Source: Sulfurimonas sp. (GTDB taxonomy: Bacteria; Campylobacterota; Campylobacteria; Campylobacterales; Sulfurimonadaceae). Taken from it: DNA of 64,000 nucleotides. Below the pieces are notes generated by a model. That model was given only the letters and a program-made list of their open reading frames with translations, made no database searches and was not told where the DNA came from. Both the position numbers and the translations under genes were made by a program. The DNA lies in the NCBI GenBank assembly GCA_016744115.1, contig JADGEZ010000002.1, positions 28,409 to 92,408 on the forward strand, in the 5' to 3' direction. Shown here piece by piece: positions 50,378 to 64,000 of the stretch; the stretch's first letter is position 1; each line of letters opens with the position of its first letter.

Positions 50378-52525
50378 TTAATCTATAACGATACTACCCA
50401 TTACTTCAAATGTTGCACTTGAGTCTATTTCAGCATGAGATAAGGTCACAACATCAAGAGAAAATCTTTCAAATATTTCAGCAACACCACGACGAAGCTG
50501 AGGATCTACGATTATAACAACAGGTGATACTCCTTTTTGAAGTAGTTCAGCAGCTTTGGCACTTGTTGCTTGAATAAGAGAGTTGATTTCACCAACATTA
50601 AGCATTAGATTACTAACCCCCTCTCTTTGTGTTAATTTTTCTAACATTTTTTGTTCAGAAGATGTATCAAAGGTTAAAAGTCTAATCACTCCATCTTCAC
50701 TTGAGTACATCTGTGTAATTACACGGGAGAGTTTTGCTCTTACTTGTTCTGATATAACATCAACATTTTTAGTAAATTCTCCTACATCAGCAATAGTTTC
50801 TAATATACTTAGCATATCTTTTAATGGAATATTTTCGTGCAAAAGAGCTTTTAAAATTCTTTGAATGAGACCAATACTAGCAACTTTAAGGACATCATCA
50901 GTGATAACAGGGAAGTCTTCTTTGATTTTATCAATAAGTACTTGAACCTCTTGTCGTGTAAGTAAATCTTCTGCATTCTTTTTAACGAGTTCGCTCATGT
51001 GTGTTGATATTACAGTAGAAGGATCAACTACAGTATAACCATTTTCTATAGCTAACTCTTTTTCTTGTGCAAATATCCACATAGCATCAAGTCCAAAAGC
51101 AGGCTCTTTTGTAGGTTCTCCAGAAATTTCTCCAGTTGCCATTCCGCTATCCATCGCTAAGAATTTATCAGGTATAATACTCCCCTCTCCGATTGAAATT
51201 CCCTTAAGTAGTATTTGATACTGTTGGGGTTGTAGATGTAAATTGTCTCGTATCCGAACCTGAGGCATCAAAAAACCAAAATCACTTGCAATTTTTCTTC
51301 TCATAGAACGAATACGCTCTAGTAAATCACCACCTTGGGAACTATCTGCTAATCGGATAAGCTGATAACCTAAGGTAAGTTCTAACATTTCGATTTTAAG
51401 TATCTCCTCTAATGCTGTTTCTTCTTCTTTTGCTATCTCTTTATTTGTTTTTTTAGGCTTTATAGTCTCTTGTTCTTGTATATTTTGGGAAGCATCTCCA
51501 TCAAAGATAGAGAACTCCCCTCTCTCATATTTATATATTGACCAACCTAGACCTGCAAAAATAAACCCTACAAGTCCCATAGAAAAGGTAGGAAGACCGG
51601 GAACCATAGCAAATAAAATCATAATAAATCCAACTATCATCATGATCTTTGCATTTCCCATCATCTGATTTACTGCACCCTCTGCGAAGTTATCACCATC
51701 TCCAGAGGAGCGAGTTATCATAATACCTGTAGCAGTAGAGATAATTAGTGCAGGAATTTGTCCCACAAGTCCATCACCAATAGTTAAAAGTGTAAATGTA
51801 GAAGCTGCGTCACCAACAGTCATATCATGTTGGAAAACACCGATCAAAAATCCACCAATGATATTGATGAGTGTAATGATAATACCAGCAACAGCGTCAC
51901 CTTTTACAAATTTAGAAGAACCATCCATCGCTCCATAAAAGTTTGCATCTTGAAGAATCTCTGCACGGCGTTGTTTCGCCTGAGAATCATCAATAAGACC
52001 AGCATTTAAGTCAGCATCAACTGCCATTTGTTTTCCAGGCATAGAATCAAGTGTAAATCTTGCAGCTACCTCAGCAACCCTTGTAGAACCCTTAGTAATT
52101 ACCATAAAGTTTATAAGTACTAAAATCGAAAAAACTATGATACCAATAACAAAATTACCACCAACAACAAAGTCTCCAAAACTAGTGATGATACTACTCA
52201 CATTTTCTGTTCCTTGATGTCCATAACTTAGAATCATCCGTGTAGTAGCGATATTTAAAGAAAGTCTAAATAATGTAATTATTAAAATGAGCGTAGGAAA
52301 GGTTGATAAATCTGTGGGTTTTGGTACATACAAAGAGATTAAAAGTATTAAAACTGCTATTGCCATAGAGATAGTTAAAAAAATATCTAATAGCTCTGAG
52401 GGTAGAGGAACAATGATAATTGCAAGTATACCCATAACAAAAACAACAACACCAATATCTTTTTGCCCTAAAAGAAAATTTAGAACGCCTGCAGTTTGTT
52501 GCTTGAAGCTTTGATTATTTGCCAA
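50378..52525 (-). CDS. flhA: Flagellar export gate protein FlhA
   Basis: The 715-residue protein has the eight-helix N-terminal domain (about 20-330), the FHIPEP region RVAEVAARFTLDSMPGKQMA, ISTATGIMITRSSG, and a cytoplasmic substrate-docking domain (about 365-715). It drives export of flagellar subunits. The Rrf2 gene lies 4 nt upstream, and rpsO is nearby, an arrangement shared with Campylobacter jejuni. Confidence 0.96.
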   Translation of the reverse strand: MANNQSFKQQTAGVLNFLLGQKDIGVVVFVMGILAIIIVPLPSELLDIFLTISMAIAVLILLISLYVPKPTDLSTFPTLILIITLFRLSLNIATTRMILSYGHQGTENVSSIITSFGDFVVGGNFVIGIIVFSILVLINFMVITKGSTRVAEVAARFTLDSMPGKQMAVDADLNAGLIDDSQAKQRRAEILQDANFYGAMDGSSKFVKGDAVAGIIITLINIIGGFLIGVFQHDMTVGDAASTFTLLTIGDGLVGQIPALIISTATGIMITRSSGDGDNFAEGAVNQMMGNAKIMMIVGFIMILFAMVPGLPTFSMGLVGFIFAGLGWSIYKYERGEFSIFDGDASQNIQEQETIKPKKTNKEIAKEEETALEEILKIEMLELTLGYQLIRLADSSQGGDLLERIRSMRRKIASDFGFLMPQVRIRDNLHLQPQQYQILLKGISIGEGSIIPDKFLAMDSGMATGEISGEPTKEPAFGLDAMWIFAQEKELAIENGYTVVDPSTVISTHMSELVKKNAEDLLTRQEVQVLIDKIKEDFPVITDDVLKVASIGLIQRILKALLHENIPLKDMLSILETIADVGEFTKNVDVISEQVRAKLSRVITQMYSSEDGVIRLLTFDTSSEQKMLEKLTQREGVSNLMLNVGEINSLIQATSAKAAELLQKGVSPVVIIVDPQLRRGVAEIFERFSLDVVTLSHAEIDSSATFEVMGSIVID

Positions 52526-52985: not shown

Positions 52986-54239
52986 TTAAACTAATTTAAT
53001 TGTAACTTGATTTCTTCCATTTTCTTTTGAATGATAGAGTGCTTGATCTGATAGCTTAATCATCTCATCAAGATTTTTTGCTAGACCAAAAGAGATACCA
53101 ATAGAAACAGTATATGTTATAGTATTTTTTGAAACTTTTATCTTATTTACCTCAAAAGATTGCCTTATTCTTTCAAAAACTATTTCTGTATTTTCTTGAC
53201 TGATTCCTTCAAGAAGTATGCAAAATTCTTCTCCCCCAAATCTTGCAATCAAATCTGACTTTCTTAGTCTCGCTTCTAAAATAGTTTTAACTTCTTTGAT
53301 AGCTATATCACCGATATGATGTCCATAGGTATCATTTATTTTTTTAAATTTATCTATATCAATTGTAGCCACAGCAACAGAATGTTTTTTTCTTCTATTT
53401 TTTGAAAAGATAGGTTTTCCTGCATCAAAGAAATATCTTCTGTTATACAAACCTGTTAAGAAATCTTTATTTGCCATATCTTTGATCTGAGTGAACAAAT
53501 CCAAAAGTTCTAAATTAGCATTAATTCTAGTAATTATTTCATTATTAGAGAAAGGTTTATGAACAAAATCATTTGCCCCAAATCTTAAAAATTTCGCAAT
53601 TGTTTCTTCTTTTTCTAAAGAACTTATAGCAATAATTGCAAGTTGATCTTTTTTATAATTTTCACGGATTTTAAATGTCAGCTGATGCCCATCCATATTT
53701 GGCATCTCATAATCTGTAATTAGTAAAGAGGTTTGAGGGTTGTCCTTTAAAATTTTTAATGCTTCTACCCCATCTTCAGCTTCTAATATATTTAAATGTA
53801 ATCTTTTTAAAATATTTACTATCGCAGAACGGTAAACAAGAGAATCATCGACAACTAAAATAGTTGTATCATAATTCTTTAAAGTTCTCAAGATAGACTT
53901 AACTGCAAACTTTATACTCGATGGATCGTCTTTGAGTACAAAATCTATTATGTCTCTTTTGAGTATAGACTCTTTTAAATCTTCATCCGCAGTAGCACTA
54001 AGTATTACCGCTGGTATATCATGAGAATTAGCAAGTTTTACAATCTCTCCATTGGATGCATCAGGAAGGTTGAGGTCAAGTAAAGCAGCGTGAAAACCAC
54101 CTTGGTGCTCTCGGATAATATGTAAAGCACTCTTAAAGGTATCTGCAAAATAAGGTTCTATATCATCATATTTTTCTATTTCAAGTTTTAAAAGGGTCAA
54201 AATCGTTTTGCTATCATCTACAATAAGTACTTTTTTCAT
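52986..54239 (-). CDS. Two-receiver diguanylate cyclase (PleD/CbrR-like)
   Basis: The 417-residue response regulator has receiver 1 (about 1-120, phospho-Asp D55), receiver 2 (about 125-245, D176, with Lys in HKPF) and a GGDEF domain (about 255-417) with GGEEF at 335-339 and the inhibitory RKSD just before it. Both receivers look functional. It should make c-di-GMP on phosphorylation, as PleD does; C. jejuni CbrR has the same layout. A TAAAAT ends 7 nt before the ATG (minus strand), so the mRNA may be leaderless. The cognate kinase is not in the window. Confidence 0.93.
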   Translation of the reverse strand: MKKVLIVDDSKTILTLLKLEIEKYDDIEPYFADTFKSALHIIREHQGGFHAALLDLNLPDASNGEIVKLANSHDIPAVILSATADEDLKESILKRDIIDFVLKDDPSSIKFAVKSILRTLKNYDTTILVVDDSLVYRSAIVNILKRLHLNILEAEDGVEALKILKDNPQTSLLITDYEMPNMDGHQLTFKIRENYKKDQLAIIAISSLEKEETIAKFLRFGANDFVHKPFSNNEIITRINANLELLDLFTQIKDMANKDFLTGLYNRRYFFDAGKPIFSKNRRKKHSVAVATIDIDKFKKINDTYGHHIGDIAIKEVKTILEARLRKSDLIARFGGEEFCILLEGISQENTEIVFERIRQSFEVNKIKVSKNTITYTVSIGISFGLAKNLDEMIKLSDQALYHSKENGRNQVTIKLV

Positions 54240-55074: not shown

Positions 55075-55080
55075 TACAAT
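55075..55080 (+). promoter_or_regulatory. -10 element of the chemosensory operon
   Basis: TACAAT lies 32 nt before the PAS gene ATG, giving a start site near 55087. GGAGG precedes the ATG. No further promoter is obvious inside the cluster, whose genes are spaced 0-22 nt apart. Confidence 0.5.
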
Positions 55081-55112
55081 AGCAAAAAAATTGATTTACA
55101 TGGAGGTTTATA

Positions 55113-55541
55113 ATGTCAAAAAAAAATAATGAAATATCTACAGAAGGTTTAACATTTTTAGATGATGGGGAGGTTCTTTATAATGACTTATATCTTTTAT
55201 CAGAAACAGATGATAAGGGAATAGTTGAATACGCAAGTGACTCATTTTTAAAAATAGCCAATATGCACTTAGAAGATATAGTAGGACAACCGCATAATAT
55301 TGTTCGCCATCCTGAGATGCCACGCACTGCTTTTAAATCACTTTGGGATGATATTCAATCGAAAGGTTTTTGGACAGGTTATGTCAAAAATACTCGTAAA
55401 GGTGGAGGATACTATTGGGTCTATGCAACAGTTCTAAAATCAGTAAATAAAAATGGAAACACAAAGTATGTATCTATTAGAGTCAAACCATCTCGTGAAG
55501 ATATAAAAGCAGCTGAAGCGTTGTACGCTACACTAGACTAG
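55113..55541 (+). CDS. Aer-like PAS-domain sensor protein
   Basis: The 142-residue protein is a single PAS domain without signal or membrane segment. GQPHNIVRHPEMPRTAFKSL and GFWTGYVKNTRKGGGYYWV match the FAD-binding PAS of Aer and of C. jejuni CetB, so it may sense redox or energy state. It has no output domain of its own, so like CetB it probably acts on a separate receptor. The receptor gene starts 18 nt downstream, and it is first in the cluster. Confidence 0.88.
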   Translation: MSKKNNEISTEGLTFLDDGEVLYNDLYLLSETDDKGIVEYASDSFLKIANMHLEDIVGQPHNIVRHPEMPRTAFKSLWDDIQSKGFWTGYVKNTRKGGGYYWVYATVLKSVNKNGNTKYVSIRVKPSREDIKAAEALYATLD

Positions 55542-55559
55542 AAATAAAAGGATTCCGTA

Positions 55560-57452
55560 ATGGCATTAATGAAAAAAGGGAACTCAGGATCATCTGTACA
55601 AGCTTTATCTTCTATAGGTGGGGATTCTAAAAGAAGACAAAGAACCTTAGCAAAACAACAACAAATCTCTGAAAGTATTGTTGGTATATCAATGACAATT
55701 TTAGATAATGCACAAGAGAGTGTGTCGGCTATAGAAGAGCTAAAGTCTTCAATGGAACAAATTGCTACAGCTGCTGAAGAAAATTCTGGGGCAAGTGAAC
55801 AAGCCTTGAGTAATGTTAAAAGTATTAATTCAAATATTAGAAGAATGAATTCAACTATAGATACAGTGATAGGTTCTACTATGGCAACGGGTGATAATAT
55901 TATGAACTCTGTTGAAAAGATTAGCTCATCAGTGGCTAGAATGGATGAAGCTGTAGTTGTTGCACAAGAATCATCTAAGAAAAGTGAAGAGTTAAAAGAG
56001 TCTTCTCAAAATATTGGTAACGCGGTCAGTTTTATCGCTAAAATTGCAGATCAGACAAATCTTTTAGCTCTAAATGCTGCCATTGAAGCATCTCGTGCAA
56101 AAGAGCATGGCAAAGGTTTCGCTGTAGTGGCAGATGAAACTCGTGCATTAGCAGGTGAGAGTGAAAAAAATGCTGAATTTATTTCAAAACTTGTCAATAA
56201 AATTCAAGGAAGTATAGATAATATTATTAAAAGCATCGGTGCAACAAATAATATTATTACATCTAATGGCGATAAAGGAAACTTACTAAGCCTAAAAATG
56301 GAAGAGCTTACTAAAATTGCTATTTATTCTGTTGAAGCGGCTAGAAGTGTAAGCTCTTATACAAATAATCTAGGTGACTTCGTTGCAAAAATAAATGATG
56401 GTTCACAAACAATTGCTTCAGATTCTCAAGAGATTGCATTATCAGTTGAAAAAACTTTAAATGGTATTGATATTCAATCAGACGCATTAGCACAAACAGA
56501 AGATGAAATAAAAGACTTATCCACACTTGCAGAAGAGTTAAAATACTCTACAGATTCTATAAAATCTGCTGAGGATATTGCACTTTCAGCTGATACTATT
56601 GGCGGTTCTATGGAAGATATTCAATCCGCTTTAGAAGATGTAACAGATTCCCTTAATAATATAGAATCATCATCTCAAAATACAAATAAGTCAGCATTAA
56701 AAAACAAAGAACTTATAGAAAACGGAATTACAGCAGCTAAAGATATCCATAAACTTATTGAAATAGCTAGAAGAAATTTTGATTTATTAAAAGTTTCCTT
56801 TAATGTTGTTAAGGGAAGCATAGTTGAAATTCGTGAATCATTTAATGAATCTATTTCACAAGGAAATGATGCAGGAAGTGAACTTAGCATTATTGTTAAA
56901 GAAACAAAAAATGTTTATAAAACAGTAGGTAATATTTCTAACTCTATCGTGCAGTTAAATATGCTTGCAATATCAGGATCAATTGAGGCTGCTCGTGCTG
57001 GAGATTTTGGAAAAGGGTTTGCTGTAGTTTCAGCAGATATAAGAAACTTAGCAAAAGACTCAGAACAAAATACCGATAAGATTAATGATATAGTTGAATC
57101 CATGAATTCTGAGATAGATACTGTTAAAAATGATTGGAATAATCTTCTAAGTTCTCAATCAAGTGAACAAAAATCTATAGATAGTCTCATAACTGATATT
57201 ACTCGAATTATTGATATGTTAATTGATTTACTAGATAAATACACAGGGCTTAAAGCTGTAAATGATCAAAATATAGAAGGTCTCAATCAAGTTATGGTTG
57301 GTATTTCTGAAGTACAAAAAGCAGTAGAACTGAGTGCTAGAAATGCAATGGAATCCAGAAAAGCTAGTGAACTTATAATTGAAACTGTTTCTCATATTGG
57401 TGAAGGTGTAGAAGAGTTAGCTGTTATGGCAGATGAACTTCAACAAGGGTAA
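55560..57452 (+). CDS. Soluble methyl-accepting chemotaxis protein with two signalling tips
   Basis: The 630-residue protein has no signal peptide or membrane segment and is almost wholly coiled coil. It contains two receptor tip regions about 300 residues apart. Tip 1 (about 155-205) is canonical: [19 protein letters not shown]. Tip 2 (about 455-505) is diverged: [20 protein letters not shown]. Each has GKGFAVV after it. There is no sensor domain, so the adjacent PAS protein probably supplies input. Vibrio DosM also has two signalling domains and helps build cytoplasmic arrays; that comparison is by layout only. Confidence 0.92.
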
Positions 57453-57457
57453 GAACT

Positions 57458-58822
57458 ATGCAAGTTCAAGAGATATTAATTGTCAAAAATGATAAAGAGA
57501 GTTATGGAATATCTACAAATGATATAAGCCAAATCTCAAGAGTACCATTGTTGATGCCCTTACCTTTAAGACCATTTGGTGTTAGAGGCTTATGTGCAGT
57601 CAGAGGCAATATTGTCACTATGCTTGATATGAATCTTTTACTAAATATGAACGAAGAAGTTGAATATAATAATGATAAATCAAGATTAGTACTCTTAAAT
57701 AATGATCTTGCAACATCCACACTTTTAGTGAGTGAAATATATAATACAGTTGAAGTAGATCGAAAAAACATTGACTATATAAACAAAGCAAATGACCCTA
57801 TAATCGCAATATATAAATATAAAAATGAACTCATACAAGTTGTAGATTTAAAAATTTTATTTAAAAAAATAAAGAAAGTCACAATAGATTCAAAAGAAAT
57901 TGAAAAAGGTAAAATAAAACAAGAACTTGGCAGAGAAGAGGAGTTTAGTCGATTTTTAATTTTCTTGATGCACGATGAAAAATATGCTATAAATATTGAT
58001 TTTTTAAGAGAAATCATTTTAGCTGATACTAACTATACAGATATTTCTGGAAGTTCTAGTGAGGTTTTAGGTTTAATTACTTTGAGAGACGAACTTTTAA
58101 TTGTGATAGATTTGAGAAAACACTATGGTTTTAAAGCTAGTAGACATTATAAAAATCGTATTTTAATAGCTTTTCACGAAGAAAAAAAGATAGGTCTTTT
58201 AGTAGATCAAATACTAGATATTAAAAATTTTTCAAACAATGACATAGAGTATATGCATGATGATTTTAAAGACAATAAACTAGCAGGTGTTATTCATGAT
58301 AAAGATTCATTAATATCATTTTTTGATTCAAGTGTGTTAGAAACTTTGTTTAAAGAAAATGAATCTTATATAGATTATAAGCATGAAATAGATGAAATTG
58401 AAAATGAAAATTTCATCATGGAAGTAATCATTTTTAAACTTGCAGATAAAGAGTATGCTTTTGAAGTTGAAATTGTTGCAGAGATTATAGACATAGTAGA
58501 TTCGACTAAAATAGTGCTTAGTGACGAAGTAATTGATGGTATCATTAATATAAGAGGTCAAGTAGTCGCTATAATATCTTTGTTTAAAAAATTAAATATT
58601 CAAACGCGTATAAATATAGATTCTAAGATAATTATTTGTGAAATAAATGGAATAAAAATAGGATTTATTGTTGATAGTGTAAGTGATATTTTACATGTTA
58701 AAGCAGATGAAGTTAGGGAGCAAGAAGATGCATTATTCTCAAATATACTTTATTTGAATAATGGCAAAAGACTAGTATTATCTATGGATATAGATGTAAT
58801 TATAGCTAAGAAGGATATATAA
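57458..58822 (+). CDS. Triple CheW-domain coupling protein
   Basis: The 454-residue protein consists of three CheW-like domains in tandem (about 1-130, 165-295 and 310-454). Each has the family strand pattern and a turn such as GVRGLCAVRGNIVTMLDM, GLITLRDELLIVIDL or GIINIRGQVVAIISL. CheW links receptors to CheA; three linked copies would join several receptor or kinase partners. It starts 5 nt after the receptor gene and its stop overlaps cheB as TAATG. Confidence 0.9.
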   Translation: MQVQEILIVKNDKESYGISTNDISQISRVPLLMPLPLRPFGVRGLCAVRGNIVTMLDMNLLLNMNEEVEYNNDKSRLVLLNNDLATSTLLVSEIYNTVEVDRKNIDYINKANDPIIAIYKYKNELIQVVDLKILFKKIKKVTIDSKEIEKGKIKQELGREEEFSRFLIFLMHDEKYAINIDFLREIILADTNYTDISGSSSEVLGLITLRDELLIVIDLRKHYGFKASRHYKNRILIAFHEEKKIGLLVDQILDIKNFSNNDIEYMHDDFKDNKLAGVIHDKDSLISFFDSSVLETLFKENESYIDYKHEIDEIENENFIMEVIIFKLADKEYAFEVEIVAEIIDIVDSTKIVLSDEVIDGIINIRGQVVAIISLFKKLNIQTRINIDSKIIICEINGIKIGFIVDSVSDILHVKADEVREQEDALFSNILYLNNGKRLVLSMDIDVIIAKKDI

Positions 58823-59883
58823 TGGCAAAAAAAATTTTAATTGTTGATGATTCAGCACTCGTAAGAAAACAACTCAAAAAGATAATAGAAACATTAGAAT
58901 TTGAAATAGATACAGCTAAAAATGGTCAAGAAGCAGTGGATAAAGCGACATCAATACAGTATGATGTTATTACTATGGATATTAATATGCCAGTAATGGA
59001 TGGTATTGAAGCGGTTAAAAGGATTATGACGGAGAAACCGACAGCGATTTTGATGATTAGTTCTTTAACAACAGAGGATGCAACTATCACGATGGATGCT
59101 TTAGAATTAGGTGCGATTGATTTTATAGCCAAACCTGGTACTATGAATGTGGGTAAACGAGAAAATAGTGACGATATCTTAGAAAAAGTAAAAATTCTTT
59201 CTAAAATACCCTTAAGAAGATTAAAAAGAAAAGCAGTAAAACCTGTCACAAGAGTAAGAAGAAGGACTGAAATCAAAACACAAGAAGAGGTGATCGCTAG
59301 TAGCTTAGATGTAAGAAAAATTGTGCTTATTGGAAGTTCAACTGGTGGACCTGGTTTAATTGAGCAAATTTGTGCATCATTACCTCTTAGCTATAAATAT
59401 CCTGTATGTATAGTTCAGCACATGCCTGAACAGTTTACCGCAGCCTTTGCTAAAAGATTAGATCGTGTTAGTGCTGTAAATGTTCATGAAAGTACTCAAA
59501 ATATGGAATTATTACCAGGAAATGTTTATCTTGCTAAAGGTGGCGTTCATATGAATTTTTCTAAAAAAGTCTCAGGAAAAATAGTTATACGAATGGATAA
59601 AGAAAAAGGTGACAACTTTTTTCAACCATCAGTAAATAACATGATGTTTAGTGCTGTTGAAACTTTTGGAGCTCAAAATCTTGTTGGAGTACTTTTAACA
59701 GGGATAGGTGATGATGGAGCGGATGCAATGGTGCAAATAAAAGAGGGTGGTGGATATACTCTTGGTGAGAGTGAAGAGAGTGCTACTGTATATGGTATGC
59801 CTAAAGTGGCCTATGAAAGCGGTGGTGTTATGGAGCAGTTAGACTTTATGCAGATACTTAAAAAGATAGCAACAATGAAGTAA
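58822..59883 (+). CDS. cheB: Chemotaxis methylesterase CheB
   Basis: The 353-residue protein has a receiver (D53, with Lys in AKPG) and a methylesterase domain with the catalytic triad S173 (GSSTGG), H200 (VQHMPEQF) and D298 (GIGDDGADAM). It removes receptor methyl groups and provides adaptation. All catalytic residues are intact. It overlaps the CheW gene by one base and precedes the HEAT-like gene by 11 nt. Confidence 0.95.
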   Translation: MAKKILIVDDSALVRKQLKKIIETLEFEIDTAKNGQEAVDKATSIQYDVITMDINMPVMDGIEAVKRIMTEKPTAILMISSLTTEDATITMDALELGAIDFIAKPGTMNVGKRENSDDILEKVKILSKIPLRRLKRKAVKPVTRVRRRTEIKTQEEVIASSLDVRKIVLIGSSTGGPGLIEQICASLPLSYKYPVCIVQHMPEQFTAAFAKRLDRVSAVNVHESTQNMELLPGNVYLAKGGVHMNFSKKVSGKIVIRMDKEKGDNFFQPSVNNMMFSAVETFGAQNLVGVLLTGIGDDGADAMVQIKEGGGYTLGESEESATVYGMPKVAYESGGVMEQLDFMQILKKIATMK

Positions 59884-59894
59884 AGGACTTAGTC

Positions 59895-60518
59895 ATGGCA
59901 TTAATTAAAAAACATGTAGCACAAGTGATAGAAGAATTACCAGTATTTGATACGCTTGATGATGCTAAAAATTATTTTAGTTTAAACGAAAGCTCAGATA
60001 AAGCAGATTATGCAGTAGAAGAGATAGCTAGATTTGATGGTGGGGGTAGCTTTTTAGTTTCCTATATTAATAATGAATATGCAGATAAAAAAATATCAAC
60101 GAAAATAGCCTCTGTAATATCAAGTATGAATCCCGATGATGCACCTATTGAAGAAATCATGGATTTACTTAAGTTAAATAATGCATATGCTAGAAGCCTT
60201 GGGATTTCAATTTTGAGAAATTTTGGGGATGCTATGAAATATTACATAGTAAAGTTTTTAATCGGAGATGATAAAGATTTGAGAATTTTTGCTATTAATG
60301 TTTTAGGAGATGTAAATTTCGCACAGTCTAGAGATATGTTAGTAGAGCTTTTAGAAACAGAAGAAGATATAAATGTAGCAATGACGGCGGTGAATTATAT
60401 GGGTGAAATCGGTGAAGTTGAAGATATTGCCTTACTAAAATCATTAAAAACAAAGTTCTCTGGTGACTTTTATGTTGAATTTGCAGTTGATAGTGCAGTT
60501 AAATTGATAAACGGTTAA
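59895..60518 (+). CDS. HEAT-repeat-like protein of the chemosensory operon
   Basis: The 207-residue soluble protein is all-helical with repeats of paired helices (NAYARSLGISILRNFGD; DKDLRIFAINVLGDVN; EEDINVAMTAVNYMGEIG), typical of HEAT scaffolds. It lacks catalytic motifs. Its place between cheB and cheR suggests a binding or adaptor role in the pathway; the partner is unknown. CheR starts 3 nt after its stop. Confidence 0.8.
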   Translation: MALIKKHVAQVIEELPVFDTLDDAKNYFSLNESSDKADYAVEEIARFDGGGSFLVSYINNEYADKKISTKIASVISSMNPDDAPIEEIMDLLKLNNAYARSLGISILRNFGDAMKYYIVKFLIGDDKDLRIFAINVLGDVNFAQSRDMLVELLETEEDINVAMTAVNYMGEIGEVEDIALLKSLKTKFSGDFYVEFAVDSAVKLING

Positions 60519-60521
60519 GTG

Positions 60522-61352
60522 ATGGCACATTTATTATCAGTAGAAAACTTTGCTAAAATTGGTGAGTTTATATATAGAAAAAGTGGTATTTTTTTAGAAA
60601 AAGAAAAGCATTATGATAAATTAGCAAAGTATGTAAATTCTCGTGCTAGAGATTTAGAGATAGATAGTTTTAGAAAGTATTTTTTTAAGCTTCGTTTTGA
60701 TGATGAAGTGGGTGATGAATTTCAAGCTTTAATGAATGCTATCACAGTAAATGAAACTTATTTCTTTAGAGAAAAAGATCAGTTTGAAGTTTTAGTAAAT
60801 GAAATTTTACCAGAATTACATGAGACCATACCAAGCGATAGAACACTTAGAATTTTATCCTCACCATGTTCTACAGGAGAAGAACCTTACTCTATGATAC
60901 TCCATATTGTAGAAGAAGGTGAAGTAGTTCAAAAAAGAGATATAGAAGTAGTCGGTATAGATATAGATTCAACAGTAATTGAGAAAGCTATAGTTGGGCT
61001 TTTTAGTGATAGATCAGTGCATGCGATTCCTAAAGGTATCTTAGCAAAATGGTTTGATAAAAAATCATTAGGTTATCAATTAGGAGAGGATCTCAATGGT
61101 TCAGTTAATTTTCAAGTTGCAAATATTTTTGACAAAGTTCAGATGAGAAAATTAGGAAAATTTGATGTTATATTTTCAAGAAATATGCTTATATATTTTG
61201 ATGATACATCAAGAAAAGAAGTTGCCATGACATTTTATGACATGCTTAATCCAGGAGGTTATGTTTTTTTAGGACATGCAGAATATATGAGTCGAATTGT
61301 TTCTGTTTTTAATGCTAAAAAAGTTAATAATACTCTCATATATCAAAAATAA
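60522..61352 (+). CDS. cheR: Chemotaxis methyltransferase CheR
   Basis: The protein has the CheR N-terminal helices and the SAM-binding domain: ILSSPCSTGEEPYSM, VVGIDIDSTVIEKA, and FDVIFSRNMLIYFD. The motif NETYFFRE is present. It methylates receptor glutamates using SAM. I chose ATG 60522 rather than the GTG three bases earlier, giving 276 residues. No C-terminal pentapeptide-binding or TPR extension is visible. Confidence 0.95.
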   Translation: MAHLLSVENFAKIGEFIYRKSGIFLEKEKHYDKLAKYVNSRARDLEIDSFRKYFFKLRFDDEVGDEFQALMNAITVNETYFFREKDQFEVLVNEILPELHETIPSDRTLRILSSPCSTGEEPYSMILHIVEEGEVVQKRDIEVVGIDIDSTVIEKAIVGLFSDRSVHAIPKGILAKWFDKKSLGYQLGEDLNGSVNFQVANIFDKVQMRKLGKFDVIFSRNMLIYFDDTSRKEVAMTFYDMLNPGGYVFLGHAEYMSRIVSVFNAKKVNNTLIYQK

Positions 61353-61362
61353 GGAAAATAAT

Positions 61363-61737
61363 ATGCCATTAGTAATATTTGTAGACGACAGTGAGACAGC
61401 ATTAGCATCAACAAGAATGGTGACTAATTCAATGCCAATAGAAGTGAAACAATACACACAAGCACAAGTAGCATTAGCGGAGATTAAAGCAGGGATGATA
61501 CCTGATTTAATTATCACAGACCTTAATATGCCAGTGATGAATGGATTAGAGTTTTTACAAGCTTTAAGAGCAGTGCCGTCAACGAGTAGAACACCAACTT
61601 TAATGCTAACTACTGAAACAAAAGCAGAATTAAAACAACAAGGTAAGGTGCTTGGACTAACAGGTTGGATTGTCAAACCTTTTAACCCAGCTCAGTTAAA
61701 ACAAGCAATTACCAGAGTTTTAAGATTACCAGTATAG
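61363..61737 (+). CDS. CheY-like response regulator (first)
   Basis: The 124-residue single receiver has the acidic pair D8-D9, phospho-Asp D53 (ITDLNMPVMNG), Thr83/84 and Lys105 (VKPF), so it should be phosphorylated by CheA. I chose ATG 61363; a longer frame from 61297 would overlap cheR and lacks a ribosome-binding site. AAGGAAA precedes this ATG. It lies between cheR and the CheZ-like gene. Confidence 0.93.
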   Translation: MPLVIFVDDSETALASTRMVTNSMPIEVKQYTQAQVALAEIKAGMIPDLIITDLNMPVMNGLEFLQALRAVPSTSRTPTLMLTTETKAELKQQGKVLGLTGWIVKPFNPAQLKQAITRVLRLPV

Positions 61738-61745
61738 GAAATGAT

Positions 61746-62141
61746 ATGTTAATCTTAGATTCAGTTGATAATTTATTAGAACATATTGAAGAGGTTCAAA
61801 AAGATGTGACACATCTCTCTAGTGAGTCTTTACTTAAAATGTGTGCTTTTATTGAAAATGGCAATATAGAAGTAAATGATGATATTGCAGCAGCTTTACA
61901 GTATCAAGACATCATTACTCAACAATTAAGTGCTACAATTGAAGCAATAAATAGCATGAGAGTAAGTATTAAAAGATTTTCGCATGCCTTTTCGAATGAT
62001 GAAACTTTAGCACAAGATAGCATGAGCAAGTTGCATGATAAATTAAATAAAACTTTAGCAGAGGCTAAAGATAAAAAAAGCAGATTCTCTGGTAAAATAC
62101 TAGATAGTGAAGATGCTGTTGATACGATAGAATTTTTTTAG
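61746..62141 (+). CDS. Small CheZ-like CheY-P phosphatase
   Basis: The 131-residue protein is almost entirely helical. It carries the CheZ active-site pattern: Q54-D55-x3-Q59 within YQDIITQQL, with the Asp-to-Gln spacing of E. coli CheZ (D143, Q147). The C-terminus ends DAVDTIEFF, resembling the CheY-binding tail of CheZ (a VDxLLxxLGF-type end). It is much shorter than E. coli CheZ (214). It lies between two CheY-like genes, exactly the expected substrates. The assignment rests on these two short motifs and on context. Confidence 0.7.
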   Translation: MLILDSVDNLLEHIEEVQKDVTHLSSESLLKMCAFIENGNIEVNDDIAAALQYQDIITQQLSATIEAINSMRVSIKRFSHAFSNDETLAQDSMSKLHDKLNKTLAEAKDKKSRFSGKILDSEDAVDTIEFF

Positions 62142-62150
62142 GAGATTGAT

Positions 62151-62516
62151 ATGGCAACAATAATGGTAGTAGATGATTCTAAGACAGTTAGAAGTTATCA
62201 CAGTTCCATCCTTAAATCTGTTGGGATTGAAGTTTTAGAGGCTGAAAATGGTATGGAAGCACTAGAAAAGAGTTTAGGTGCGGAGATAGATTTATATTTA
62301 GTTGATGTGAACATGCCGGTTATGGATGGATATACTTTTATACAAGATCTTCGAAAACAAGAAAATCATAAAATAGTGCCAATTATCATGATTACAACTC
62401 AAGCTAAAGATGAGGATAAAGAAAATGCTTATAAAGTGGGGGCGAATTTTTTTGAAACTAAGCCTATTAAACCTGATAAGTTACAAGCATATATTGATAT
62501 TTTAGTTAAGAAGTAA
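62151..62516 (+). CDS. CheY-like response regulator (second)
   Basis: The 121-residue receiver has D8-D9, phospho-Asp D52 (VDVNMPVMDG), Thr81/82 and Lys103 (TKPIKP), complete for phosphotransfer. It differs from the first CheY in most surface residues. It begins 9 nt after the CheZ-like gene and ends 10 nt before cheA. One of the two CheY proteins may be the output and the other a phosphate sink; which is which is unknown. Confidence 0.94.
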   Translation: MATIMVVDDSKTVRSYHSSILKSVGIEVLEAENGMEALEKSLGAEIDLYLVDVNMPVMDGYTFIQDLRKQENHKIVPIIMITTQAKDEDKENAYKVGANFFETKPIKPDKLQAYIDILVKK

Positions 62517-62526
62517 GGAAGGTATT

Positions 62527-64000
62527 ATGGATCCGTTATTAGAACAGTTTTTACAAGAAGCAAGAGAAAATTTAGCATTTATTGATCAGAATATTGAAGA
62601 GATTGGTGGTGATGATCCCGAGCTTTTAAATTCTGTATTTCGTGCTGCACATACTCTAAAAGGTGGCAGTGGAATAGTAGGTTTTGAATCTGTAAAAGAA
62701 ATTACCCATCATGCAGAAGATTTACTTGATATGCTTCGTGCTGGAAAGTTGGATTTTCAAGTAAGTATGAAAGAATCTTTGTTTGATGCTTTTGATGAGG
62801 TTATGAACCTTATTGAAGCTGCCGAAGATACTGAAGATATTGTTGATGCTGATGAAGAAACTATTGTAAAGATTGTAAAAAGTTTAAGCTTACAGATGGG
62901 TAAAAATACCTCTGTAGAAACAAAATGGAAAATTCCTTTTATTTTAGCAAGTGATCCATCAATGTTTGTAAATATGCCTTTACAAATATTAAATGGTGTT
63001 GATTGTGTCAAGATACCTTTTATTAATGCTACTTTAGATGAGAATTTTTGTAATCATAGTAACCTTTACGCTGTTTTATTTGATGTAGATGAATCATGTA
63101 TGGTATACGGAAATGATCCAGTCTATGCTTTATCTTTACTTGAAGATAAAGTTTTAGGTGTTTTTTCATGTATGAGTGATAATAATGCTAAATCAGTATT
63201 AAGCGGCACTGAAGATGAGGATGGGTTACTTTTAAAATCAACAATAGTCGCTTATGTTTATGCTAGGTATGAGGAAATTGAAGATTCATTATTTAATTTT
63301 ATTGATGAACTTCAGCTTTTTCCTCTTGATATTGAGACTTTACTTAGTGTTGATGTAGGTGATTACGGACACAATATAGACTCTCTTAAAGAGTTAGTAG
63401 ATATAGCAGATGATTTAGACTTAGTAACTATCGTAGAAGAAGTGAAAAGATCTATGAATTTAATTGGTAAAGGTACATTGCAATATATGCAACTTCAAAG
63501 ATTTTTAGACATTAGGGGTCTCATCGCTGATACTGATACAACTAAACTAGGGAATTTTTTTAATACTTTGTATGATGGAAATGTCTATAAAATGATAAGT
63601 AAAGTAGCAGTAGAGAATATTGAAACTATAGAAGAAAAATCTGTACAAGTAGGCGAAGAAAAAAAAGTTGTCAAAATGGATGAAGTAGGAGTTGTCAAAA
63701 TAGATGAACAAGTAATAGTCTCTCCAGATATTGTAGTAATAAAATCAGATGAATCAACTCAAGCTATTCTTGTAAATATGATGCTTCAACAACTAAAAGC
63801 GATTCAATTTATTGAAAATAAAGAGGATCTTGCTAGAGTAGTTTTTATCATGGAAAATATACGAAAATATTTTTCAAATATGCCAAAAATATTTGCATCA
63901 AAAGAAGATATACAAAGTTTTTTAGAATCTGAATTAGGATCTTTACTACCAAAAATTGAGCTAAAAGAAGAGAATGAAAATATTACTAAAGATACAGAAG
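62527..64000 (+). CDS. cheA: Chemotaxis histidine kinase CheA, N-terminal part (runs off the window)
   Basis: The frame is open from ATG 62527 to the window end, 491 codons. GGAAGG lies before the ATG. The HPt domain (about 1-110) has phospho-His H42 in AAHTLKGGSG. The following 380 residues show no dimerisation or ATPase domain yet, so the P1-P3 interval is much longer than in E. coli CheA. It includes LYAVLFDVDESCMVYGND and a Lys/Glu/Val-rich linker (about 370-400). Kinase and CheW-like domains must lie beyond the window. Confidence 0.9.
   Translation, partial: MDPLLEQFLQEARENLAFIDQNIEEIGGDDPELLNSVFRAAHTLKGGSGIVGFESVKEITHHAEDLLDMLRAGKLDFQVSMKESLFDAFDEVMNLIEAAEDTEDIVDADEETIVKIVKSLSLQMGKNTSVETKWKIPFILASDPSMFVNMPLQILNGVDCVKIPFINATLDENFCNHSNLYAVLFDVDESCMVYGNDPVYALSLLEDKVLGVFSCMSDNNAKSVLSGTEDEDGLLLKSTIVAYVYARYEEIEDSLFNFIDELQLFPLDIETLLSVDVGDYGHNIDSLKELVDIADDLDLVTIVEEVKRSMNLIGKGTLQYMQLQRFLDIRGLIADTDTTKLGNFFNTLYDGNVYKMISKVAVENIETIEEKSVQVGEEKKVVKMDEVGVVKIDEQVIVSPDIVVIKSDESTQAILVNMMLQQLKAIQFIENKEDLARVVFIMENIRKYFSNMPKIFASKEDIQSFLESELGSLLPKIELKEENENITKDTE

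What the first reader, a model, noticed from the sequence alone, without database searches (positions are those of the whole stretch)
55075..64000. Accessory cytoplasmic chemosensory operon of unusual architecture
Ten genes run on one strand from a single predicted promoter: PAS sensor, double-tip soluble receptor, triple CheW, CheB, HEAT-like protein, CheR, CheY, CheZ-like, CheY, CheA. No product before CheA has a membrane segment, so the array would be cytosolic. The combination of a sensorless two-tip receptor, fused CheW domains and a dedicated small phosphatase is not one I know as a described system.
Basis: partly seen in the sequence, partly recalled or inferred. Interest (0 to 1): 0.75.

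Follow-up and report, generated by a model that had tools for sequence, protein, structure and literature searches.

The report
F9 cytoplasmic chemosensory operon in Sulfurimonadaceae
This is a complete gene set for a known kind of free-floating bacterial sensory array (class F9, as in cholera bacteria), here in sulfur bacteria related to Campylobacter, apparently refitted so that separate redox-sensor proteins feed it.

Summary
The ten genes are really there, on one strand, tightly packed and without membrane segments; the operon runs past the window for at least three more genes (CheW with an inserted CZB domain, STAS-like, ParA). It is not an undescribed system: double-tip receptor (DosM) plus triple CheW are the signature parts of chemosensory class F9, whose V. 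cholerae member forms two-layered cytoplasmic arrays. I find CheW3 in 83 of 228 genomes of the host's family, the same order from PAS to CheA in the 41 further loci read (as far as each reaches), and the core order DosM-CheW3-CheB-HEAT-CheR-CheY-CheA in other phyla. The HEAT protein is a common F9 gene. Tip-to-tip spacing of DosM is 300 residues in 42 of 42 family loci and 60 of 64 others. Features of this lineage: an Aer-type PAS protein in its own gene, a CZB domain inserted in an adaptor, a freestanding CheZ-like protein whose counterpart elsewhere is fused to a one-tip receptor, and no other receptor in this genome with a DosM-type tip. Most likely a ParA-positioned cytosolic sandwich array reporting redox state to two CheYs. 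Output and phosphatase activity remain inferred.

The parts
55113..55541 (+). Stand-alone Aer-type PAS protein, 142 aa, no MCP or HAMP
   Evidence: phmmer to E. coli Aer PAS (PDB 8dik) E 5.5e-29 over residues 22-141, RHPEMP for RHPDMP; found in 40 of 42 family loci, directly upstream of DosM
55560..57452 (+). DosM: soluble chemoreceptor with two signalling tips (turn residues 182 and 482), conserved basic N-terminus [16 protein letters not shown]
57458..58822 (+). CheW3: three concatenated CheW domains
   Evidence: Pfam CheW, 3 stretches, E 4.2e-61
58822..59883 (+). CheB (receiver + methylesterase)
59895..60518 (+). HEAT-repeat protein, common F9 gene between CheB and CheR
   Evidence: HEAT_2 E 3e-11; between CheB and CheR in at least 22 of 37 loci of other phyla where both are visible
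60519..61352 (+). CheR methyltransferase (GTG start)
61363..61737 (+). CheY-a, single receiver; counterpart of the CheY that precedes the MCP-CheZ fusion in other phyla
   Evidence: phosphorylation-site residues kept
61746..62141 (+). CheZ-like helical protein, 131 aa; conserved QxQDxxxQQL and C-terminal EFF
   Evidence: no significant Pfam, PDB-sequence, hhalign or fold match
62151..62516 (+). CheY-b, single receiver
62527..64000 (+). CheA, 910 aa; continues to window-equivalent position 65259
   Evidence: L003:8936-11668, Hpt / H-kinase_dim / HATPase / CheW. Beyond the window follow CheW with CZB insert (65261-66022), STAS-like (66037-66306), ParA (66287-67033), then REC-PAS-HK, REC protein, FIST-HK-REC

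Best explanation
A complete class F9 chemosensory system. DosM dimers span two CheW3/CheA base plates and make a membrane-free sandwich array in the cytosol (inferred from homology to V. cholerae cluster I). CheB and CheR tune it by methylation; the HEAT protein is probably a scaffold or regulator of that pair. ParA probably positions and segregates the array on the nucleoid, as PpfA does in R. sphaeroides, perhaps through DosM's conserved basic N-terminus. DosM has no sensor domain and no same-tip partner receptor in this genome, so input most likely comes in trans from the Aer-type (presumably flavin) PAS protein and, where present, the zinc/redox CZB domain in the extra CheW. The array would therefore report cytoplasmic redox or oxygen state through CheA to CheY-a, switched off by the CheZ-like protein, and to CheY-b. 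Gene content, order, tip spacing and sensor homologies are shown; array form, ligand, phosphatase activity and output are inferred.
For: DosM + CheW3, the F9 signatures (definition in PMC9321776). Same order from PAS to CheA in the 41 further family loci as far as they extend; core order in many phyla and constant 300-aa tip spacing. No membrane helices. A separate F3-type set in the genome. PAS is Aer-like, E 5.5e-29. CZB above Pfam cut-off with Zn ligands kept. ParA is Soj/ParA-like and follows F9 genes in Thermodesulfovibrio, Thermodesulfobacterium, a Methylococcaceae MAG and Halorhodospira. The other complete receptors found in this genome all carry the F3-type tip; the DosM tip-1 pattern occurs once per genome in 79 of 80 genomes that have it. 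CheZ-like: D and Q at the spacing of E. coli CheZ D143/Q147.
Against: No experiment in this lineage; F9 function is unknown even in V. cholerae. Straight-helix length for 300 residues is about 45 nm, against 35 nm measured between base plates in V. cholerae. In V. cholerae a second cytoplasmic receptor seems needed in the trimers; none with a matching tip is seen here. The CZB insert is missing from part of the family, so it cannot be the essential input. CheZ identity is motif-level only.
Confidence: 0.72

Rival explanations
1. F9 system whose input is a conventional receptor: DosM is only scaffold, and F3-type soluble receptors (such as the TlpD-like receptor, L101) join its trimers.
For: DosM lacks a sensor domain. 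G000 has a soluble receptor without membrane helix and with a CZB-like C-terminus (L101). V. cholerae arrays contain a second receptor (PMC7534058).
Against: That receptor carries the F3-type tip [29 protein letters not shown], unlike DosM. The conserved operon supplies a PAS gene instead, and in other phyla a one-tip receptor is in the locus while here it is not.
Confidence: 0.2
2. The F9 output is flagellar motility, as an auxiliary input to the motor beside F3.
For: Two CheYs with full phosphorylation sites; most F9 genomes are flagellated (PMC9321776); flhA lies nearby (50378-52525).
Against: No motor-binding feature was tested for either CheY; F3 is thought to serve the motor in this phylum (PMC9321776); F9 CheA deletion has no detectable phenotype in V. 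cholerae under standard conditions (PMC7534058). Downstream REC/HK and FIST proteins suggest other outputs.
Confidence: 0.3
3. The 131-aa protein is not a phosphatase but a structural or docking helix protein.
For: No CheZ match by Pfam, PDB sequence search, hhalign to E. coli CheZ or Foldseek.
Against: Invariant QxQDxxxQ motif, long helices, acidic-aromatic C-terminus like CheZ; homologous-looking tail of MCP fusions next to CheY-a, one of which hits Pfam CheZ weakly (16.9 bits, below cut-off).
Confidence: 0.25
4. A chemosensory class not yet described.
For: PAS in trans, CZB in an adaptor and a freestanding CheZ-like protein are not in the F9 descriptions I read.
Against: The tested F9 signatures are met and the core order is the same as in other phyla.
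Confidence: 0.03

Closest known systems
Class F9 chemosensory system, V. cholerae cluster I
   Same: DosM with two tips, triple CheW, own CheA, cytoplasmic, beside another F class
   Different: No one-tip or PAS-bearing receptor gene in the cluster here; PAS is a separate protein; extra CheW with CZB; freestanding CheZ-like protein. V. cholerae gene sequences could not be fetched for comparison.
Partial F9 sets of Nitratiruptor and Nautilia (Campylobacterota)
   Same: Same phylum, DosM, CheW3, CheB, CheR
   Different: Those lack cheA and cheY; this one is complete and common in its family
R. sphaeroides CheOp3 cytoplasmic cluster with PpfA
   Same: Cytosolic cluster with an operon-encoded ParA-type ATPase
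   Different: Different receptors (TlpT, TlpC), no DosM or CheW3 described
E. coli Aer PAS domain
   Same: PAS over residues 22-141, E 5.5e-29, RHPxMP motif
   Different: Aer joins it to HAMP and a receptor; here the PAS stands alone
CheW-CZB adaptors (Perkins et al. 2021, PMC8262984)
   Same: CheW plus zinc-binding CZB
   Different: CZB sits inside the CheW domain of an F9 operon gene, and is absent in some relatives

Membership tests
Class F9 | Receptor with two tandem signalling domains (DosM) | tested here: met
   two MCP tips at residues 182 and 482
Class F9 | Adaptor with three concatenated CheW domains | tested here: met
   three CheW stretches in 454 aa
Class F9 | 44H receptor length | tested here: inconclusive
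   tip-to-tip 300 aa fits two arms of about 150 aa (22 heptads would be 154); no heptad-class HMM run
Class F9 | Own CheA, CheB, CheR, CheY in the cluster (full set) | tested here: met
Class F9 | No membrane segments | tested here: met
   hydropathy scan
Class F9 | Double-layered cytoplasmic array | not testable with these tools
   needs cryo-tomography
Class F9 | CheA falls in the F9 clade | not tested
   no reference set of CheA by F class was at hand; DosM tree only
CheZ phosphatase (PF04344) | Significant family match | tested here: not met
   no Pfam, PDB, hhalign or Foldseek match for the window protein
CheZ phosphatase (PF04344) | Catalytic D-x-x-x-Q in a helix | tested here: met
   D55 and Q59 invariant in 38 sequences, within helix 45-84 of the model; E. 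coli D143/Q147
Aer-type PAS | Sequence match over the whole PAS domain | tested here: met
   8dik E 5.5e-29
Aer-type PAS | Binds FAD | not testable with these tools
   one motif residue differs conservatively (RHPEMP for RHPDMP)
CZB domain (PF13682) | Above gathering score, with 3 His and 1 Cys | tested here: met
   31.2 vs 29.4 bits; H, C(xxG)xW, HxxxH present
PpfA-like array partitioning | ParA-type ATPase in a che operon with no ParB gene beside it | tested here: met
PpfA-like array partitioning | Receptor N-terminus stimulates the ATPase | not testable with these tools
   only a conserved basic N-terminus is seen

The most novel reading that the evidence does not exclude
A chemoreceptor array whose receptor lattice is DosM alone and whose sensing is done wholly in trans, by a free flavin PAS protein and by a redox domain built into an adaptor: sensing uncoupled from the receptor polypeptide.
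Probability: 0.3. Interest if true: 0.62.

Novelty: new member of a known kind. Interest (0 to 1): 0.36.

Why it matters
F9 arrays are poorly understood, and in the best-studied case, V. cholerae, deleting F9 CheA gives no detectable phenotype under standard conditions. This lineage offers a compact, conserved version in environmental sulfur bacteria, with an obvious candidate stimulus (redox or oxygen), a candidate positioning protein and a candidate phosphatase in one operon. It also shows that the HEAT protein, the STAS-like protein, ParA and a CheZ-like unit recur in F9 loci of other phyla, which gives testable parts of the class beyond DosM and CheW3.

Tried and rejected
Undescribed class: rejected on the F9 signatures. 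Single promoter: sigma-70 scan and sigma-54 search gave nothing above chance. CheZ by sequence or fold: hmmscan, PDB hmmsearch, hhalign against E. coli CheZ and Foldseek all negative, so only the motif and context argument is kept. F9 on plasmids: one weak Methylosinus CheW hit. V. cholerae cluster I itself was not among the pattern hits, so the comparison with it rests on papers. The first Campylobacterota-wide search found only 2 of 298 genomes because it drew few of the carriers; the family-wide search replaced it.

Full report
What is there. Ten + strand genes fill 55113-64000. Pfam confirms a PAS protein, a receptor with two MCP signalling stretches, a protein with three CheW domains, CheB, a HEAT-repeat protein, CheR, two single-receiver proteins and the Hpt start of CheA. 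The window lies in a 2.05-Mb draft genome (G000), where CheA is complete at 910 aa. The operon continues with a CheW that holds a CZB domain, an 89-aa protein and a ParA; then come REC-PAS-HK, a REC protein and FIST-HK-REC. None of the products has a convincing membrane helix. The claim of a single promoter is not supported by the scans.

What it is. A receptor with two signalling domains (DosM) and a triple CheW (CheW3) are named as the unique components of chemosensory class F9 (PMC9321776). V. cholerae cluster I is F9; electron cryotomography shows two hexagonal receptor layers sandwiched between two CheA/CheW base plates 35 nm apart (PMC3964821; PMC7534058). F9 was reported among the classes of free-living Campylobacterota (PMC9239204), while the later paper stresses partial sets without cheA and cheY in Nitratiruptor and Nautilia. 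So the finding is a full F9 system and not an undescribed one. F3-type CheV, CheA and CheW genes of this genome lie on another contig.

How common and how conserved. CheW3 was found in 83 of 228 genomes of the host's family, in 11 of 18 genera. I read 41 further loci. Within the reach of each locus the order is PAS, DosM, CheW3, CheB, HEAT, CheR, CheY-a, CheZ-like, CheY-b, CheA; one locus (L075) shows no recognisable CheZ-like gene. Behind CheA come a CheW (often with CZB), the STAS-like gene and ParA; the first two swap places in some loci, and some have a second such CheW. The REC protein follows in 35 loci. One divergent short locus (L090) shows DosM to HEAT only.

Other phyla. A DNA pattern for the second DosM tip, chosen to exclude the host family's usual spelling, found 89 stretches in public genomes, among them Alphaproteobacteria, Firmicutes, Thermodesulfobacteria, Thermodesulfovibrio, Leptospiraceae and Bacteroidota. 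The core order DosM, CheW3, CheB, (HEAT), CheR, CheY, CheA recurs. A HEAT protein lies between CheB and CheR in at least 22 of the 37 loci where both are visible; this is a lower bound because overlapping reading frames hid some. The distance between the two tips is 300 residues in 42 of 42 family loci and in 60 of 64 others, with 299, 299, 305 and 306 as the exceptions. A straight helix of that length would be about 45 nm, more than the 35 nm measured in V. cholerae; I could not reconcile the two. A DosM tree of 99 sequences joins the family's loci with one further Campylobacterota sequence (L160) and L186 (support 1.0); the sampling by pattern makes this only indicative.

The 131-aa protein. 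Its alignment of 38 sequences has invariant Q52, Q54, D55, Q59 and Q60, and ends in EFF in nearly all. E. coli CheZ has D143 and Q147 in the same spacing, in AQDFQDLTGQ, and ends DDLLDSLGF. AlphaFold gives long helices with a disordered tail. Yet Pfam, PDB hmmsearch, hhalign with E. coli CheZ and Foldseek show no significant match. Support comes from context: in Thermodesulfovibrio, Thermodesulfobacterium, a Methylococcaceae MAG and Halorhodospira, the gene next to a CheY-a-like gene and beside or close to ParA encodes a one-tip receptor whose C-terminus carries FQDVVRQ or a like motif and ends in IELF or similar; the Halorhodospira copy touches Pfam CheZ at 16.9 bits, under the cut-off. I read the window's protein as that domain, set free. 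This is inference.

Input. The first gene is an Aer-type PAS domain, matching PDB 8dik at E 5.5e-29 over residues 22-141, with RHPEMP for Aer's RHPDMP. It has no receptor part. The CheW behind CheA is interrupted by a CZB domain, above Pfam's cut-off; many relatives have it, others have a plain CheW of about 143 aa. The seven other receptors of the genome that I read carry the F3-type tip; one weak MCP-like match at a contig end (C55) was not resolved. The DosM tip-1 pattern occurs once per genome in 79 of 80 genomes that have it; the exception, G305, has the locus on two contigs. So the one-tip receptor seen in some F9 loci of other phyla has no counterpart here, and I think the PAS protein replaces it as the input. 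That it acts in trans on DosM or CheW3 is not shown.

Positioning and output. ParA in che operons without ParB was noted for 37% of 206 species and tied to cytoplasmic clusters (PMC2829493); PpfA of R. sphaeroides is thought to be stimulated by the N-terminus of TlpT (PMC3964821). DosM has a conserved basic N-terminus, [16 protein letters not shown] and relatives, with similar stretches in other phyla, which is a candidate for the same role. The 89-aa protein is predicted to fold as a STAS domain: best Foldseek hit RsbV, E 4.4e-4, with weak STAS_2 Pfam matches for relatives. Both CheYs keep the phosphorylation-site residues. What they act on is unknown.

Verdict. Observation sound apart from the promoter; interpretation right about a cytosolic accessory array, wrong about novelty of the class. 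New member of a known kind, with a plausible but untested sensing variant.

Noticed in passing
L208:13105-14427, L209:4738-5976, L210:4180-5406, L213:2954-4042: One-tip receptors with a CheZ-like C-terminal domain, placed with CheY-a and ParA in F9 loci of several phyla; such MCP-CheZ fusions may be a general F9 part.
   Followed up: partly
L003:13446-18792 (window-equivalent 67037-72383): REC-PAS-histidine kinase, a REC protein with a long unassigned C-terminus (found in 35 of 42 loci) and a FIST-HK-REC protein follow the operon.
   Followed up: partly
L057 (CheB), L069 (CheA, CheR), L209 (ParA): Reading frames of single F9 genes are interrupted in some loci: pseudogenes or assembly errors.
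   Followed up: no
G305 contigs C34 and C35: The F9 locus is present on two contigs of one draft genome, with identical CheW3 match scores; possibly an assembly duplicate.
   Followed up: no
L101:880-1992: Soluble 370-aa receptor with F3-type tip and a CZB-like C-terminus (TlpD-like) in the host genome.
   Followed up: partly
52986-54239, - strand: Response regulator with two receiver-like stretches and a GGDEF-type domain just upstream of the operon region, next to an Rrf2-like gene and flhA (read from the ORF translations only).
   Followed up: no
DosM of all loci: 300-residue tip spacing predicts about 45 nm between tips, against 35 nm between base plates measured in V. cholerae.
   Followed up: no
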